A DNA stretch of 64,000 nucleotides from Nereocystis luetkeana (Eukaryota; Sar; Phaeophyceae; Laminariales; Laminariaceae), in NCBI GenBank assembly GCA_031213475.1, contig JARUPZ010000002.1, positions 5,775,049 to 5,839,048 of the forward strand, written 5' to 3'. Position 1 is the stretch's first letter. Each line of letters begins with the position of its first letter. Made by a program: the position numbers and the translations under genes. Below, in pieces: positions 47,656 through 53,600 of the stretch. The notes beneath the pieces are model-generated. The model saw only the letters and a list, made by a program, of their open reading frames with translations, had not been told where the DNA came from and made no database searches.

Positions 47656-50600
47656 ATGGCGGATGCGGTCAAGGTAAGCCTTCAACCTTCCAGACCTTGT
47701 ATGGGACATTCTTCCTCTCGCTGCCACCGTACGACTTCCGACTTGCGACGCACAAGGTAATCGTTTTGTATCCTAGCGTAGCGTTGCTGACGTGTACCGT
47801 ACACCCCTGGGTGTTTCCTTATCAATGCGCCAGGCAGAGATCACGGCAATTGGCTCCAAAATCCGGGAGCTGAAGGCGTCGAAAGCGGACAAGGCTGTCA
47901 TCTCGGAGGAGGTCAGCCGCTGATGTTTGTGCCTCATTGACTACCTGGTAGTCCGTGGGGAATTCCGCATTGCTCTGAGAGTTCCAAGTCTATAAACACG
48001 ACGTAGCCTATTCCTCCAGCTCTTCTCGTCGCCAAGTTGTCTTTCTGAACCCAATTGGCCTACTGGTTGATCCTCACATATGTCCGTATAATACCAACTT
48101 CACTGTAGGCCTGTCCTGTACGACTAAAGCATGCCCTCTACGAGTCGCCTTCGTTGCGTTTGCGTGCCTACGTACTCGTTTCATCTCCAGGGCAGAAACG
48201 AATGCTCGATGGTCGAAGTGAGATGACGCCCGTTTCTTGTACTCGTACGTAGGTCGTGCAGCAACGTACCTGGCATGACAGATGAAATGCTCTGAAACAT
48301 AAAAGAGTGCATCCGTGCAGCTCATGCAGCACATTGAGACCAAACCTTCGTGCTTGGATGAACTCGTTCCCGCGATTGATTGAACAGGTTGCAAGCCTTT
48401 TGAAGGCTAAGCAGAAGTACAAGGAAGTCACCGGGAACGACTACGCGCCACCATCGCAAGAGAAGAAGCCCAAGCCCACACCCAAGGTAAACAGTTTAAT
48501 ATATCTGGCATGTACCCCGCTGCTTGCCGCTTAAGTTCTACTCCCTGTGCATTTTGGCGCCGCTACGCAAACTCTTCTCCGCCGTGGTACAAGGACGTCG
48601 TTAGTCTTTCGCAGTGGTCGCGGTAGCGGCAGCTGTAACGGACTGGACCACTGTCCTGGCGGCTGTGTAATCGCATGTTCTCGCGCTGTAAATCTATACG
48701 AGTACGTACCATCTGCTTGAATTATAAACTCCACGAGTACCTGGTACCTGATAGTTTCAAGACCATCTCACTAACCTGTACCTGGAACGAAGTATAGATG
48801 TATCCGTAGACCGTGTTATCCGATTCTAACATCACATCTTAGATGGCTGACACCCGCTACCCAAACTCAGTCCGTTCTCGCCGGACGTGTCTTCGCACCC
48901 CATTTGTCTGCTGCAGGATGCGGCACCCTCTGCGTCGGGGCCGAGCAAGAATGCCGCAAAGAAGGCTGACAAGGCCTCCAAAAAGGCAGCCTCCAAAAAG
49001 GCAGCCCCCAAAAATGCGAAATCGCCTCCCCCGGCTGGAACGCCTCCAGCCTCCTCGGCCTCTGTTGCCCCACCTTTGAAGTCCGTTGGGCCGTCCACCC
49101 CTTCCTTGTACCTCAACAGCGGTGGGCCGGGGCCCCTGAAGTGCGTAACCGCGGCGAAATTCTTTGGCGTTAAAGTTGAAGCAGCAGACATCAACCCGGC
49201 GGGTGAGACATAATCATGAGCAGGTACTACAAGGCTTCTGCTATCGGTATACCTGGTATATAAGATGGTGGTGGTGGGTACGGTGGTTCCTGTTTCGTAT
49301 GGCGTACACATGTGCAGGCATGTGTATACAGCAGCAGTCTTGGGTTTTATGGGGTAGGTGTGCGTCATCTTGCCGCCCGGCCTCTCCTTGCATGTACCAG
49401 GTACCAGGCATCTCTTGGGGGCCCACGGAGAGGCAGACTGACCTTTGCTGCGTTAGTATTATGATCCTGGTATATGGTCTCGTAGGACGCGTATCATCCG
49501 GACTTTCAGCCGTAGAAAACCCTGAAACGTCATCATGACACCCTTCTGATGTACCAGGGTAAAATGGACGCATCATCGTGCGCTTTCTTTTCCAGGCGAT
49601 CTCTCTGTCGCATCCGGCTGCGCGCTCGTTGCTGGGGGTTCGCTCATCTTCGGAGCGAACGCTATTTGCCGATATTTTTCGTACAAGGGCACCTCGTCGT
49701 CGCCGAAGGGGAAGGGTACCGACCCCGGAGCGATGGAGGGGTGGTTGGAGTGGGAGGCAGTGACGCTCGCGCCTGCTGAGAGACTGCTCGCCGCGGCTGA
49801 GCAGGGGGGTGGATCTGCTCGGCCAGAGGCTCTGGCTGCGCTCAAGCATCTCGAAGGGAAGATGACGGGGACGTGGTTGATTGAGGGGGTGAGACCAAAC
49901 AACGGTTTATATGAAGCTTTGTTTTGGTAGCATTCGGTTGGGTGCAACACTCTTTCTCTTTGTCGCGCTCCGTGCCTGCGTGTCTCATCTGTCCGCGCAA
50001 AAAAAGCGGTATTTGTGAGACCATAGCAGTCAGTGCGTACGGTTGGCAGCATTAAATTGCGTCAAGTGATGAGCCTGCTACAACGATAAGTTTGTTTCCT
50101 GGTTCAACAGGATAGTCTCCTGTGGTATCTTTTAATATATTACGTACCGGTTTGTACATTTGCCTATCGTGGATTATGTGACTCTTGAGTTCTAAGGTTG
50201 TAAGTGGTGACGCACGAGGCTCACTTCTTCTCTTCCCTACCCTGTGGGAAGTCAACAATGCGTGATTGAAACATCCATCCACAGACTACCATGCAGTCTG
50301 GGCGACCGTTGCCTGAGGCCACGAACATTCTAGAATGTGCGCTGGTCCACAGCCTCATTGGGGATGACATTGGAGACCTTCGGGCTCATCATGTATTGGA
50401 ACAGGGGTTTGTTTTCGAGTTGCTGAATAGACAAAGTGCAAGACGCGAGCAATTGCGCCGCTTTTGGAGAAGCAGCCTTGTCTCGCAGACTTCATATGTT
50501 GGTTATCAGGAGCTAGTATACACTCCCCCGTGCCCACAGACTGGAGGTCAACGACTGCCCTCCACACGAACTGGTAGCGAATCGCGCTGATATGGGTAGT

Positions 50601-53600
50601 TTAGCGTCCTTTTCTGCTTCGTCTGATGATCAAGGTTGCTGCTCATCGCTCCACATCTCCTTGGATTAGCTTGTGCCTGGGTTGAATCGAACGGGTGATA
50701 TGAATACATCGTTGCAATGACAGGGAGCGCCTTCTCTAGTGGACTTGGTGGTGGGCGTCACGGCTCAGGCGGTCATCGCTCGGCTCGGCAGCGGCGAAGC
50801 GGCATCTGCATTTCCCAAGATTCAATCGTATCTGCAACGGTTCGAGAAAGTTGAAGCGTGCATTCAAGCAGCTAGCGATATCGGCGCTTTCACCAAGGCG
50901 AGTCAACGCCCATACCGTGAAAAACGTGCAGAAAAGGCTGTGCCAAGGTTGTGGCCGGGTGGTCCTTGGTTGGCTTGTCCTTCGCTGACGTTTTACTTTA
51001 GACCGCGTCTTGACTCTCTGTTCATTGTATGTTTCGGCCGTTTTTGTAGAGTATGCTGTGACTCTTTGCAAAAGCACTGGAGGTGCCTGGCTCGTTATGG
51101 GGGCAATCCCGAACAGGTGTACAGAGTACATGATTTTATTCGGATGTCTTGTGATTTTTTTGGCGGCATGAGTTTGGGCCAATAGAAAGTATCACGAATT
51201 CTTCTATTCGCCACTTATTGGCACAAATTAGCACAAATCTCCAACGCCCATCCGAGGATGGAGGGTACTCCGGTTGCCGACCCGGAGCTCTACAGGTCAC
51301 CACAGAGGAAAAAACAAATACCCGAACCACTGCATTGACAATTCAGGTTGATCTTGGTAGTTTGAGGGCTGACAGTAACGTGAGGAGCGGAAAAACCCAT
51401 GTTCCTTGAAATTAGTAAAACATCACACCCCGAGTTGGGCCACCAGACCTCAGCTCTGATCGAGCCGATCCAACGTTTTCTGAGCCAAGCTCTCGGACTC
51501 GGGCTGGCGTTGATAATCCGGCGCTCATCGTTCTGGACCCGTATCAGTGGGCTTCAGCATCAAGGAAACTGCGGAGCATGTTGGGTGTGTCGAGATCTCT
51601 GCCCCATCGACGTTTTGGGTCTGTTCGAAGTTGTCCCAGAGTTTTCGTAAAAAAATGGCGAGCTACGCTTGAGGCTATCTAGCATACGGAACCCACTCAC
51701 ACTGCCCAGGACCCGCAGCCTAGGGGTGTATATTTTGAGTTTGAGCCAGTGCCCGAGGCGAAGCCCGCGACAAGAATCGTGAGCGGTAGCCTCAGATCGG
51801 CCTTGCTTGGTCGCCGATGCTGCTCTGTGGCAAGTTGAATTATTCGGGCACCCACAGGATGCCTCGTGCGATATTCCGCTCACTTTAGACGCCATCGGAG
51901 GCCGAACACGGCCATCGATCACCCTACTCCCAGCAGAAGAAAGCTAGCCAACGAGTAGATGGTGCTTATCCTGGAGGAAGTACGAGCGTCACGCTTGCCC
52001 GTCATTCTCGGTGCCTCACGCCATGGCTCCACTTTTGGCCATTTTCGACTTTTCTCAGGGCTGCACAGCAACATGCAGGTACCAAGTACTAAAGTACGAG
52101 TACGTCTATATGTGCGGTCTCATTTTTTAAAGAAGAAACATCTTACTTTGTACCAGCAGTACGGCCACAGAAAACACGTCGTTTAAAAGTTGTATCGTAC
52201 TCGTGTTCAAAATTTGCACAACAGTCTCGTGTACCTGTGCGTACGAGTAGAAGGTACGAGAGTATAATCATACCGTATCCCTCGCTGTAGTCTCCCTACC
52301 GTGCTGGCGAGGCTGTTGTTGCCCCGGTTTAGCTACACTCGGGTAGAGCAGCATAGGTGTGTGCTCCCCACTACATGCCTAGTGCCTAGTAGCCTTCCCC
52401 TTTCCAGGCTGTGGGAACCGATCTTTGCTTTCCTGAATACTAAGCCATCTAATAATTTTTACCGGAGTTATCACGTGAATTTTACGAACAGCAACAAAGA
52501 CAGGAACAAAATAGGTCCTATTCATAGGTAGCGGGGTTGCTCCTTATAGGTTTCGCTAGACTGGCACTTTTTGGAGGTCAGAGGTTTACTCTACAGCTCT
52601 ATGCACGAGCATCGAGGAAGATCTTCATGGGCGAGACGGAAACATTACTTCTCAGCGTAAGAGAACACGCGGGAAAGCGGGATTGCGGCAGCTTATTTCA
52701 CGTCGTGGACATACTTCCTCACGCAGTCATATTAGTTTTAATTTCCCTCAAAGAATCCGTCCAACAGCATGTTCTGATACTCCCTCGACACCGCAGCGGC
52801 ATCCTTTTTAAAATCTCGAGCTTGCCTTCCTAGTCTGTACGGTTAACGGGAAATGCCAATATACACCTGGCGGTATTGACTTTGTGCTGCGATGTCCTTG
52901 TATAGGTCCGACTAGGTCCGAGCCATGTTCCTTCGTCGGAAGAAAGACCGTGCCGGATATGTGAAGCATCGACTTGCAGGTTTATTCGACGCGTATTCCA
53001 ACGATGGGCCGTTTGGCGTTGCGATGTGTACTGGATGCTGACTGCCCAACCCGTGCTTCGTTGACGCCGTCGTGCCCCCCCCCCGGCGTTCTCCTAGGCT
53101 GCCAAACGTGCCGAGAAGGCTGGCCTGCAAGCGTCGCTACTGGCAACCTTCGATGCCGCCATGTTCAAGGCCTGGCCTTTGGCGAAGAGCGCCGGTGTGA
53201 CGTCGTCTAGCGTTCTTAAGTGCCCAAACTACAAGTACGGCGACTTCCAGTGCAATGCTGCGATGTCCTTATGCAAGGCCCTAAAGGCGGGTAAAAACGA
53301 AAAAACAAAACAAATGTCGGGGTCGTAGGCGCCACCACCATGCTTGTCGTTGCTCGATGACGCGAGGGTCAAAGAGCGATCCGCGACGACAATTTACGTT
53401 GCCCCTTTAAGGCAAACCCTTATTAGAAGAAGCATATTAACGACTACTGTAGTCTGCACCTACTCTTGCCGCACGGTAAAGAGTGTCGCCCGCAGGAGAT
53501 ATACATTTTGATGCGATGCGCGTGCCAGGTGCCATATTTGGGTGGGACGTGTAGGTCGGTTGCTCTTGATTGGCTTCTCGTTGTACATATCAGACCCCAG

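What the first reader, a model, noticed from the sequence alone, without database searches (positions are those of the whole stretch)
47656..53290. Arginyl-tRNA synthetase fused to WHEP and GST-like domains
WHEP and GST-like modules are known on MetRS, GluProRS and other members of multi-synthetase complexes, but an ArgRS with WHEP first, then a full GST-like fold, then the catalytic core is not an arrangement I know. Exon phases are continuous through all 16 exons. The appended domains could anchor ArgRS in a tRNA-synthetase complex or add tRNA affinity in this lineage.
Basis: partly seen in the sequence, partly recalled or inferred. Interest (0 to 1): 0.75.

Follow-up and report, generated by a model that had tools for sequence, protein, structure and literature searches.

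The report
Arginyl-tRNA synthetase with WHEP-GST front
A eukaryotic gene appears to encode an arginine-charging enzyme carrying two extra front modules, a tRNA-binding-type WHEP domain and a GST-like docking domain, a pairing not listed for this enzyme in the catalogue we checked; it probably ties the enzyme into a larger tRNA-charging complex, but no transcript has yet confirmed the join.

Summary
The gene runs from 47656 to 58923 (+), in 16 exons, and encodes 908 residues with no internal stop; the coordinates given cover only exons 1-7. Order: WHEP (7-56), Lys/Ala-rich linker, MetRS-like GST-like domain (about 127-308), then a complete ArgRS with HVGH and KFKTR motifs. WHEP and ArgRS are firm. 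The GST-like domain is a sub-threshold match (Pfam E 3e-4 on the isolated stretch); 0 of 8 shuffled copies hit a GST family.

The exon 6/7 join across a 2,200-nt intron is the weak point. For it: phase 0 on both sides, a good GC-AG donor, coding signal that stops at that donor, nothing above intron level inside the intron, and no in-frame start in exon 7 before residue 338. Against: no transcript, no orthologue, and introns 6 and 7 both need GC donors. I put one gene at about 0.85.

A curated 2024 catalogue lists neither domain on ArgRS. Best mechanism: GST docking into a synthetase complex plus added tRNA affinity (inferred). A new variant of a known kind, moderately interesting.

The parts
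47656..58923 (+). whole gene, 16 exons, 908-aa WHEP/GST-like/ArgRS fusion
   Evidence: splice model, 0 internal stops
47656..47673 (+). exon 1, MADAVK, first ATG of a frame open from 47512
47834..47911 (+). exon 2, first part of WHEP (residues 7-32)
   Evidence: Pfam WHEP-TRS 7-56
48388..48486 (+). exon 3, rest of WHEP and start of linker (residues 33-65)
48917..49202 (+). exon 4, Lys/Ala-rich linker and first part of the GST-like domain (residues 66-160)
   Evidence: linker 57-126 pI 10.4, 15 Lys; GST_N_5 129-188
48974..49014 (+). 15-bp tandem repeat (2.7 copies) inside the linker
49596..49888 (+). exon 5, GST-like domain centre (AICRYF and WLEWEA stretches shared with a cytoplasmic MetRS)
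50724..50897 (+). exon 6, end of the GST-like domain (residues 259-316); ends at a GC donor AAG|GCGAGT
   Evidence: GST_C_2 236-297; donor 7.9 bits, equal to the median of 15
50898..53097 (+). intron 6, fusion junction, 2,200 nt, no coding signal above intron level
53098..53286 (+). exon 7, start of ArgRS N-terminal domain; GC donor AAG|GCGGGT
   Evidence: Arg_tRNA_synt_N 354-420; donor 3.4 bits
53659..53823 (+). exon 8, ArgRS N-terminal domain
54405..54554 (+). exon 9, catalytic domain with HVGH (residue 461)
55237..55407 (+). exon 10, catalytic domain
55783..56056 (+). exon 11, catalytic domain
56541..56638 (+). exon 12, catalytic domain
56898..57080 (+). exon 13, catalytic domain with KFKTR (residue 703)
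57294..57433 (+). exon 14, end of catalytic domain
57851..58058 (+). exon 15, start of DALR anticodon-binding domain
   Evidence: DALR_1 788-908
58723..58923 (+). exon 16, end of DALR domain and stop codon

Best explanation
One gene encodes an ArgRS (probably the cytosolic one; no targeting test was run) with a 316-residue front module: a WHEP domain, a Lys/Ala-rich basic linker and a MetRS-like GST-like domain. Shown: the reading frame, the domains (GST-like weakly), and a complete enzyme part with its motifs. Inferred: the 2.2-kb intron 6 is spliced out so that both parts are one protein; the GST-like domain works as a docking surface that pairs with another GST-like domain (for example on MetRS, GluRS, an elongation-factor-1B subunit or an accessory protein) and so holds ArgRS in a synthetase complex; WHEP and the basic linker raise affinity for tRNA. 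This would do the job that the leucine-rich N-terminal helix does for animal ArgRS, with unrelated parts. Confidence: one gene about 0.85; the docking and tRNA mechanism, given one gene, about 0.6.
For: Domain matches. Codon-usage model trained only on exons 8-16 (527 codons): held-out exons 1-7 score positive in the model frame (0.18 to 1.06 bits per codon) and negative in both other + frames, 7 of 7; the best segment in intron 6 is 10.4 bits against maxima of 5.5 to 12.8 in the other 14 introns, which are shorter and served as background. Reading on past exon 6's donor (95 codons) gives -0.43 bits per codon, so coding signal stops at the donor. Exon 7 lies directly behind a stop in its frame and its first in-frame ATG is residue 338, which by the profile coordinates falls inside the ArgRS N-terminal domain, so it needs an upstream exon ending in phase 0, as exon 6 does. 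WHEP matches solved synthetase WHEP domains, best E 5.8e-7. The GST-like domain shares AICRYF and WLEWEA with a cytoplasmic MetRS. Linker pI 10.4 with 15 Lys and 3 acidic residues in 70. GST-like domains and N-terminal extensions anchor synthetases in the animal complex (PMC4394549, passages).
Against: No transcript and no orthologue: scans of viral contigs and genome contigs with the one protein found no relative, which says little, as neither is a collection of eukaryotes. Intron 6 is 2.6 times the next longest intron (835 nt). Two GC-AG introns flank exon 7 and the second donor is the weakest of 15. Candidate first exons do exist in intron 6 at looser cut-offs: 3 at 4.5 bits (tile mean 6.6) and 9 at 3.4 bits (mean 10.4); 0 at 6.0 bits (mean 3.1), but 6 of 29 control tiles also had 0. 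The GST-like match is below Pfam's gathering scores. On the minus strand exon 4 has a higher-scoring segment (30.3) than on the plus strand (17.6), so the codon score is not specific there. No interaction or binding data.
Confidence: 0.52

Rival explanations
1. Two neighbouring genes: a stand-alone WHEP/GST-like accessory protein (Arc1p- or AIMP-like) ending within 50898-51182 or at a short unseen exon, and an ordinary ArgRS whose short first exon lies in 50898-53097. They might still bind each other in trans.
For: The gap of 2,200 nt is longer than any of the other introns of the gene. Exon 6's frame stays open to 51182. Weak start exons exist, e.g. 52627-52656, donor 4.3 bits.
Against: The tail past exon 6 looks non-coding (-0.43 bits per codon), no start exon with a donor at or above the lower quartile was found in the gap (0; tile mean 3.1, though 6 of 29 tiles also have 0), and no segment in the gap rises above intron level.
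Confidence: 0.13
2. One gene with alternative products: a full fusion and a short ArgRS (from an inner promoter or start) or a truncated WHEP/GST-like protein by reading into intron 6, as mammals make long and short ArgRS from one gene.
For: Mammalian ArgRS is made in two forms from one mRNA (PMC4394549 passages). Intron 6 reads on from exon 6 for 95 codons to a stop, and GC donors are as a class weaker than GT donors (recalled).
Against: No strong inner start exon; the first Met of exon 7 (residue 338) falls inside the N-terminal domain by the profile coordinates.
Confidence: 0.25
3. Decayed or misassembled locus: the out-of-frame GT donor at intron 7 marks a frameshift, or the join is an assembly error.
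For: Intron 7 donor is the weakest; exon 8 begins with a run of G.
Against: The ArgRS domains reach their profile ends and the motifs are present; a GC donor keeps the frame; the window has 0 N bases.
Confidence: 0.05

Closest known systems
Human cytosolic ArgRS (RARS1) in the multi-synthetase complex
   Same: Catalytic core, N-terminal domain and DALR; best solved matches (4q2t, E 9.2e-145; 4zaj, 1.3e-144; 4zaj named as human in PMC6366043); also has an N-terminal anchoring extension
   Different: Its extension is a leucine-rich helix, not WHEP and GST-like domains
Human cytosolic MetRS
   Same: GST-like domain with AICRYF and WLEWEA (4bvx; organism recalled) and a WHEP domain
   Different: GST-like first, catalytic core, WHEP last; different amino acid; here WHEP comes first
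Human GluProRS (EPRS)
   Same: WHEP domains (best solved matches 1d2d and 1fyj; their identity as EPRS repeats recalled) and an N-terminal GST-like domain
   Different: WHEP links two synthetases; no ArgRS
Yeast Arc1p / AIMP accessory proteins (recalled)
   Same: GST-like domain plus basic tRNA-binding region serving synthetases
   Different: Separate proteins acting in trans, with an EMAPII-type domain rather than WHEP
Plant AsnRS with inserted WHEP (PMC7564348, passages)
   Same: Lineage-specific gain of WHEP by a synthetase outside the usual list
   Different: Inserted in a class II catalytic domain; no GST-like domain described in the passages

Membership tests
Arginyl-tRNA synthetase | argS equivalog score above cut-off | tested here: met
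   448.4 bits vs 261.65
Arginyl-tRNA synthetase | N-terminal tRNA-binding domain, class I core, DALR domain | tested here: met
   all three above Pfam cut-offs
Arginyl-tRNA synthetase | HIGH and KMSKS-type motifs | tested here: met
   HVGH at 461, KFKTR at 703; KFKTRSGET is shared with the solved cytoplasmic ArgRS
Arginyl-tRNA synthetase | charges tRNA-Arg | not testable with these tools
   needs an assay
WHEP-TRS domain | profile match above gathering score | tested here: met
   57.2 bits vs 32.5
aaRS-type GST-like domain | profile match above gathering score | tested here: not met
   GST_N_5 21.6 vs 29.6; GST_C_2 21.0 vs 24.9; GST_C 16.4 vs 20.7 bits on the isolated stretch
aaRS-type GST-like domain | sequence relation to a synthetase GST-like domain | tested here: inconclusive
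   cytoplasmic MetRS best, E 0.006; 0 of 8 shuffles hit GST families, though 3 of 8 hit unrelated families weakly, best E 0.021; two-sequence profile hits GSTs but half of it is MetRS
aaRS-type GST-like domain | GST fold | tested here: inconclusive
   exon 5 alone gave pLDDT 41; spliced domain not submitted
Multi-synthetase complex member | co-purification with other synthetases | not testable with these tools
   no biochemical data
Fusion in one transcript | RNA crossing 50897-53098 | not testable with these tools
   no reads available

The most novel reading that the evidence does not exclude
ArgRS in this lineage swallowed its own accessory factor: a WHEP, basic linker and GST-like module, elsewhere spread over other synthetases and trans-acting cofactors, became a cis-acting tether, an anchoring solution for ArgRS independent of the leucine-rich helix of animals, and defining a synthetase complex of different make-up.
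Probability: 0.35. Interest if true: 0.65.

Novelty: new variant of a known kind. Interest (0 to 1): 0.48.

Why it matters
Synthetase complexes have been studied mainly in animals, yeast and a few parasites (recalled, and in line with the passages). An ArgRS with its own GST-like and WHEP modules would show that the same few appended domains are dealt out to different synthetases in different lineages, and that ArgRS was recruited to a complex more than once by unrelated parts. It gives a concrete bait protein for asking whether this lineage has such a complex.

Tried and rejected
A decayed copy of exon 7 in intron 6: a 15-nt exact repeat (52885/53256) and a 17-of-19 repeat (50922/53104) suggested it. 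Strict scoring: the observed score (30) was reached in 1 of 200 base shuffles and 1 of 300 Markov shuffles, looser scorings in 84 and 48 of 300; of 55 tiles of 2.2 kb the best two (29) overlap intron 6 and the next best elsewhere scored 26. Left open, not claimed.

A first model with the GT donor after 53290 ran into stops in exon 8 and later exons and was replaced by the GC donor; exon 16's start was then shifted one base. A possible GST exon in intron 5 (around 50286-50590) was dropped by eye because exon 6 continues the GST pattern better.

No Rfam match at gathering score and no tRNA called in the window. Fold of exon 5 alone: no confidence, so no fold search was made.

Literature: ten searches; some listings were capped (15 of 36 papers, 15 of 437, 20 of 438). 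I saw passages, not whole texts, of ten papers (PMC4394549, PMC3359775, PMC7564348, PMC8319005, PMC11580382, PMC7373986, PMC7803708, PMC6366043, PMC6723311, PMC2813244), at most 12 passages each, fewer than all places in five of them. In none of those passages is a WHEP or GST domain placed on ArgRS; one sentence of PMC6366043 names ArgRS, MetRS and 'GluRS WHEP domain' in one list. The library is open-access only, and no eukaryotic protein database could be searched, so unpublished or merely annotated cases may exist.
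Full report
What is there. On the + strand a spliced gene runs from 47656 to 58923. I built it exon by exon from the sequence: 16 exons, 908 residues and a stop, no internal stop. The start is firm: MADAVK holds the first ATG of a frame open from 47512. Thirteen of 15 introns are GT-AG; introns 6 and 7 need GC donors (AAG|GCGAGT and AAG|GCGGGT). Scored on a matrix from the other 14 donors, the GC donor at intron 6 has 7.9 bits, equal to the median of 15; that at intron 7 has 3.4, the lowest. A GT donor after 53290 exists at intron 7, but it puts the rest of the protein out of frame; either the GC donor is used or the run of G at exon 8's start holds a one-base error.

Domains. 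Pfam finds WHEP-TRS at 7-56 (E 1.7e-15), the ArgRS N-terminal domain at 354-420 (3.6e-11), the class I core at 446-774 (4.1e-119) and DALR at 788-908 (6.9e-27), all four above the curated cut-offs. NCBIfam calls it argS (448 bits). HVGH is at 461 and KFKTR at 703. The best solved relatives of the ArgRS part are cytoplasmic ArgRS chains (4q2t, E 9.2e-145; 4zaj, 1.3e-144, named as human in PMC6366043), then 5jld (6.5e-132) and others including, as I recall, bacterial enzymes; the yeast chain 1bs2 is distant (4.7e-44). WHEP is closest to 1d2d (E 5.8e-7) and 1fyj, recalled as GluProRS repeats, then to a MetRS WHEP.

The GST-like stretch is the weakest part. GST_N_5 and GST_C_2 match in the right order at E 0.0065 and 0.0017 in the whole protein and at 2.9e-4 and 3.5e-4 on the isolated 196 residues, but stay below gathering scores. 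A cytoplasmic MetRS is the best solved match (4bvx, E 0.006; next, a GST F9 at 0.11), sharing AICRYF and WLEWEA. None of 8 shuffled copies matched a GST family, though 3 of 8 matched unrelated families weakly, the best at E 0.021. A profile of this stretch with the MetRS stretch hits bifunctional Glu/Pro ligase, elongation factor 1-gamma and many GSTs over similar positions, but half of that profile is MetRS, so it is only partly independent. Exon 5 folded alone gave no confidence.

Between WHEP and GST lies a 70-residue linker, pI 10.4, 15 Lys and 3 acidic residues, part of it a 15-bp tandem repeat.

One gene or two. The join lies across intron 6 (50898-53097, 2,200 nt; the others are 160 to 835 nt). 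A codon-usage score trained on exons 8-16 alone gives positive values for all 7 held-out exons in the model frame and negative ones in the two other + frames; intron 6 holds nothing above other introns (10.4 bits against maxima of 5.5 to 12.8; those 14 introns, not intron 6, gave the background). Reading past exon 6's donor scores -0.43 bits per codon over 95 codons. Exon 7 follows a stop in its frame and its first in-frame Met is residue 338, inside the ArgRS N-terminal domain by the profile coordinates (354 is profile position 25), so an upstream exon ending in phase 0 is needed; exon 6 supplies one. Searching the gap for another (ATG to phase-0 donor) gave 0 at the lower-quartile donor score (tile mean 3.1; 6 of 29 tiles also 0), 3 at 4.5 bits (mean 6.6) and 9 at 3.4 bits (mean 10.4): mild evidence, not exclusion. 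The codon score is less specific in exon 4, where a minus-strand segment scores higher than the plus strand. Together I give one gene about 0.85.

How it may work. In animals, ArgRS is held in the multi-synthetase complex by a leucine-rich N-terminal helix that binds p43, and MetRS and GluProRS by GST-like domains (PMC4394549, passages). [quoted passage not shown] The simplest reading here is a GST-like docking surface plus WHEP and basic linker raising tRNA affinity, on an otherwise ordinary enzyme. All of this step is inference.

Novelty. AARS Online (2024), Table 2, lists GST on CysRS, GluRS-E, MetRS and ValRS and WHEP on GluRS-E, GlyRS-E, HisRS, MetRS, ProRS-A and TrpRS (PMC11580382, passages); another paper gives the same four for GST (PMC8319005, passages). 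ArgRS is in neither list. The table is a catalogue, not a survey of protists. Ten searches of open-access papers led to no description of WHEP or GST on ArgRS in the passages I saw. No eukaryotic sequence database could be searched, so how widespread this is remains open. It is a new combination of known parts.

Noticed in passing
53850-53960, 29240-29480, 19287-19390: tRNA-like stretches with a GGTTCGAnTC box, four matches including one in intron 8 of this gene; ARAGORN calls no tRNA, so perhaps tRNA-derived short repeats.
   Followed up: partly
27201-27740: Reverse transcriptase of the RVT_2 family (E 3.2e-30; Copia-type, recalled).
   Followed up: no
31834-36608 (-): Long ORFs that look by eye like a decayed retroelement; the two submitted had no Pfam match at E 0.01.
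   Followed up: no
62710-63769: Part of an RRM-containing gene (RRM_1, E 1e-6, in the ORF 63314-63769), near the window end.
   Followed up: no
46517-47443 (-): ORF head to head with the ArgRS gene, about 365 nt between their first ATGs; no Pfam match at E 0.01. Could share a two-way promoter.
   Followed up: no
52885-52899 and 53256-53270: 15-nt exact repeat between intron 6 and exon 7, with a second near-repeat at 50922/53104; significance unclear.
   Followed up: yes
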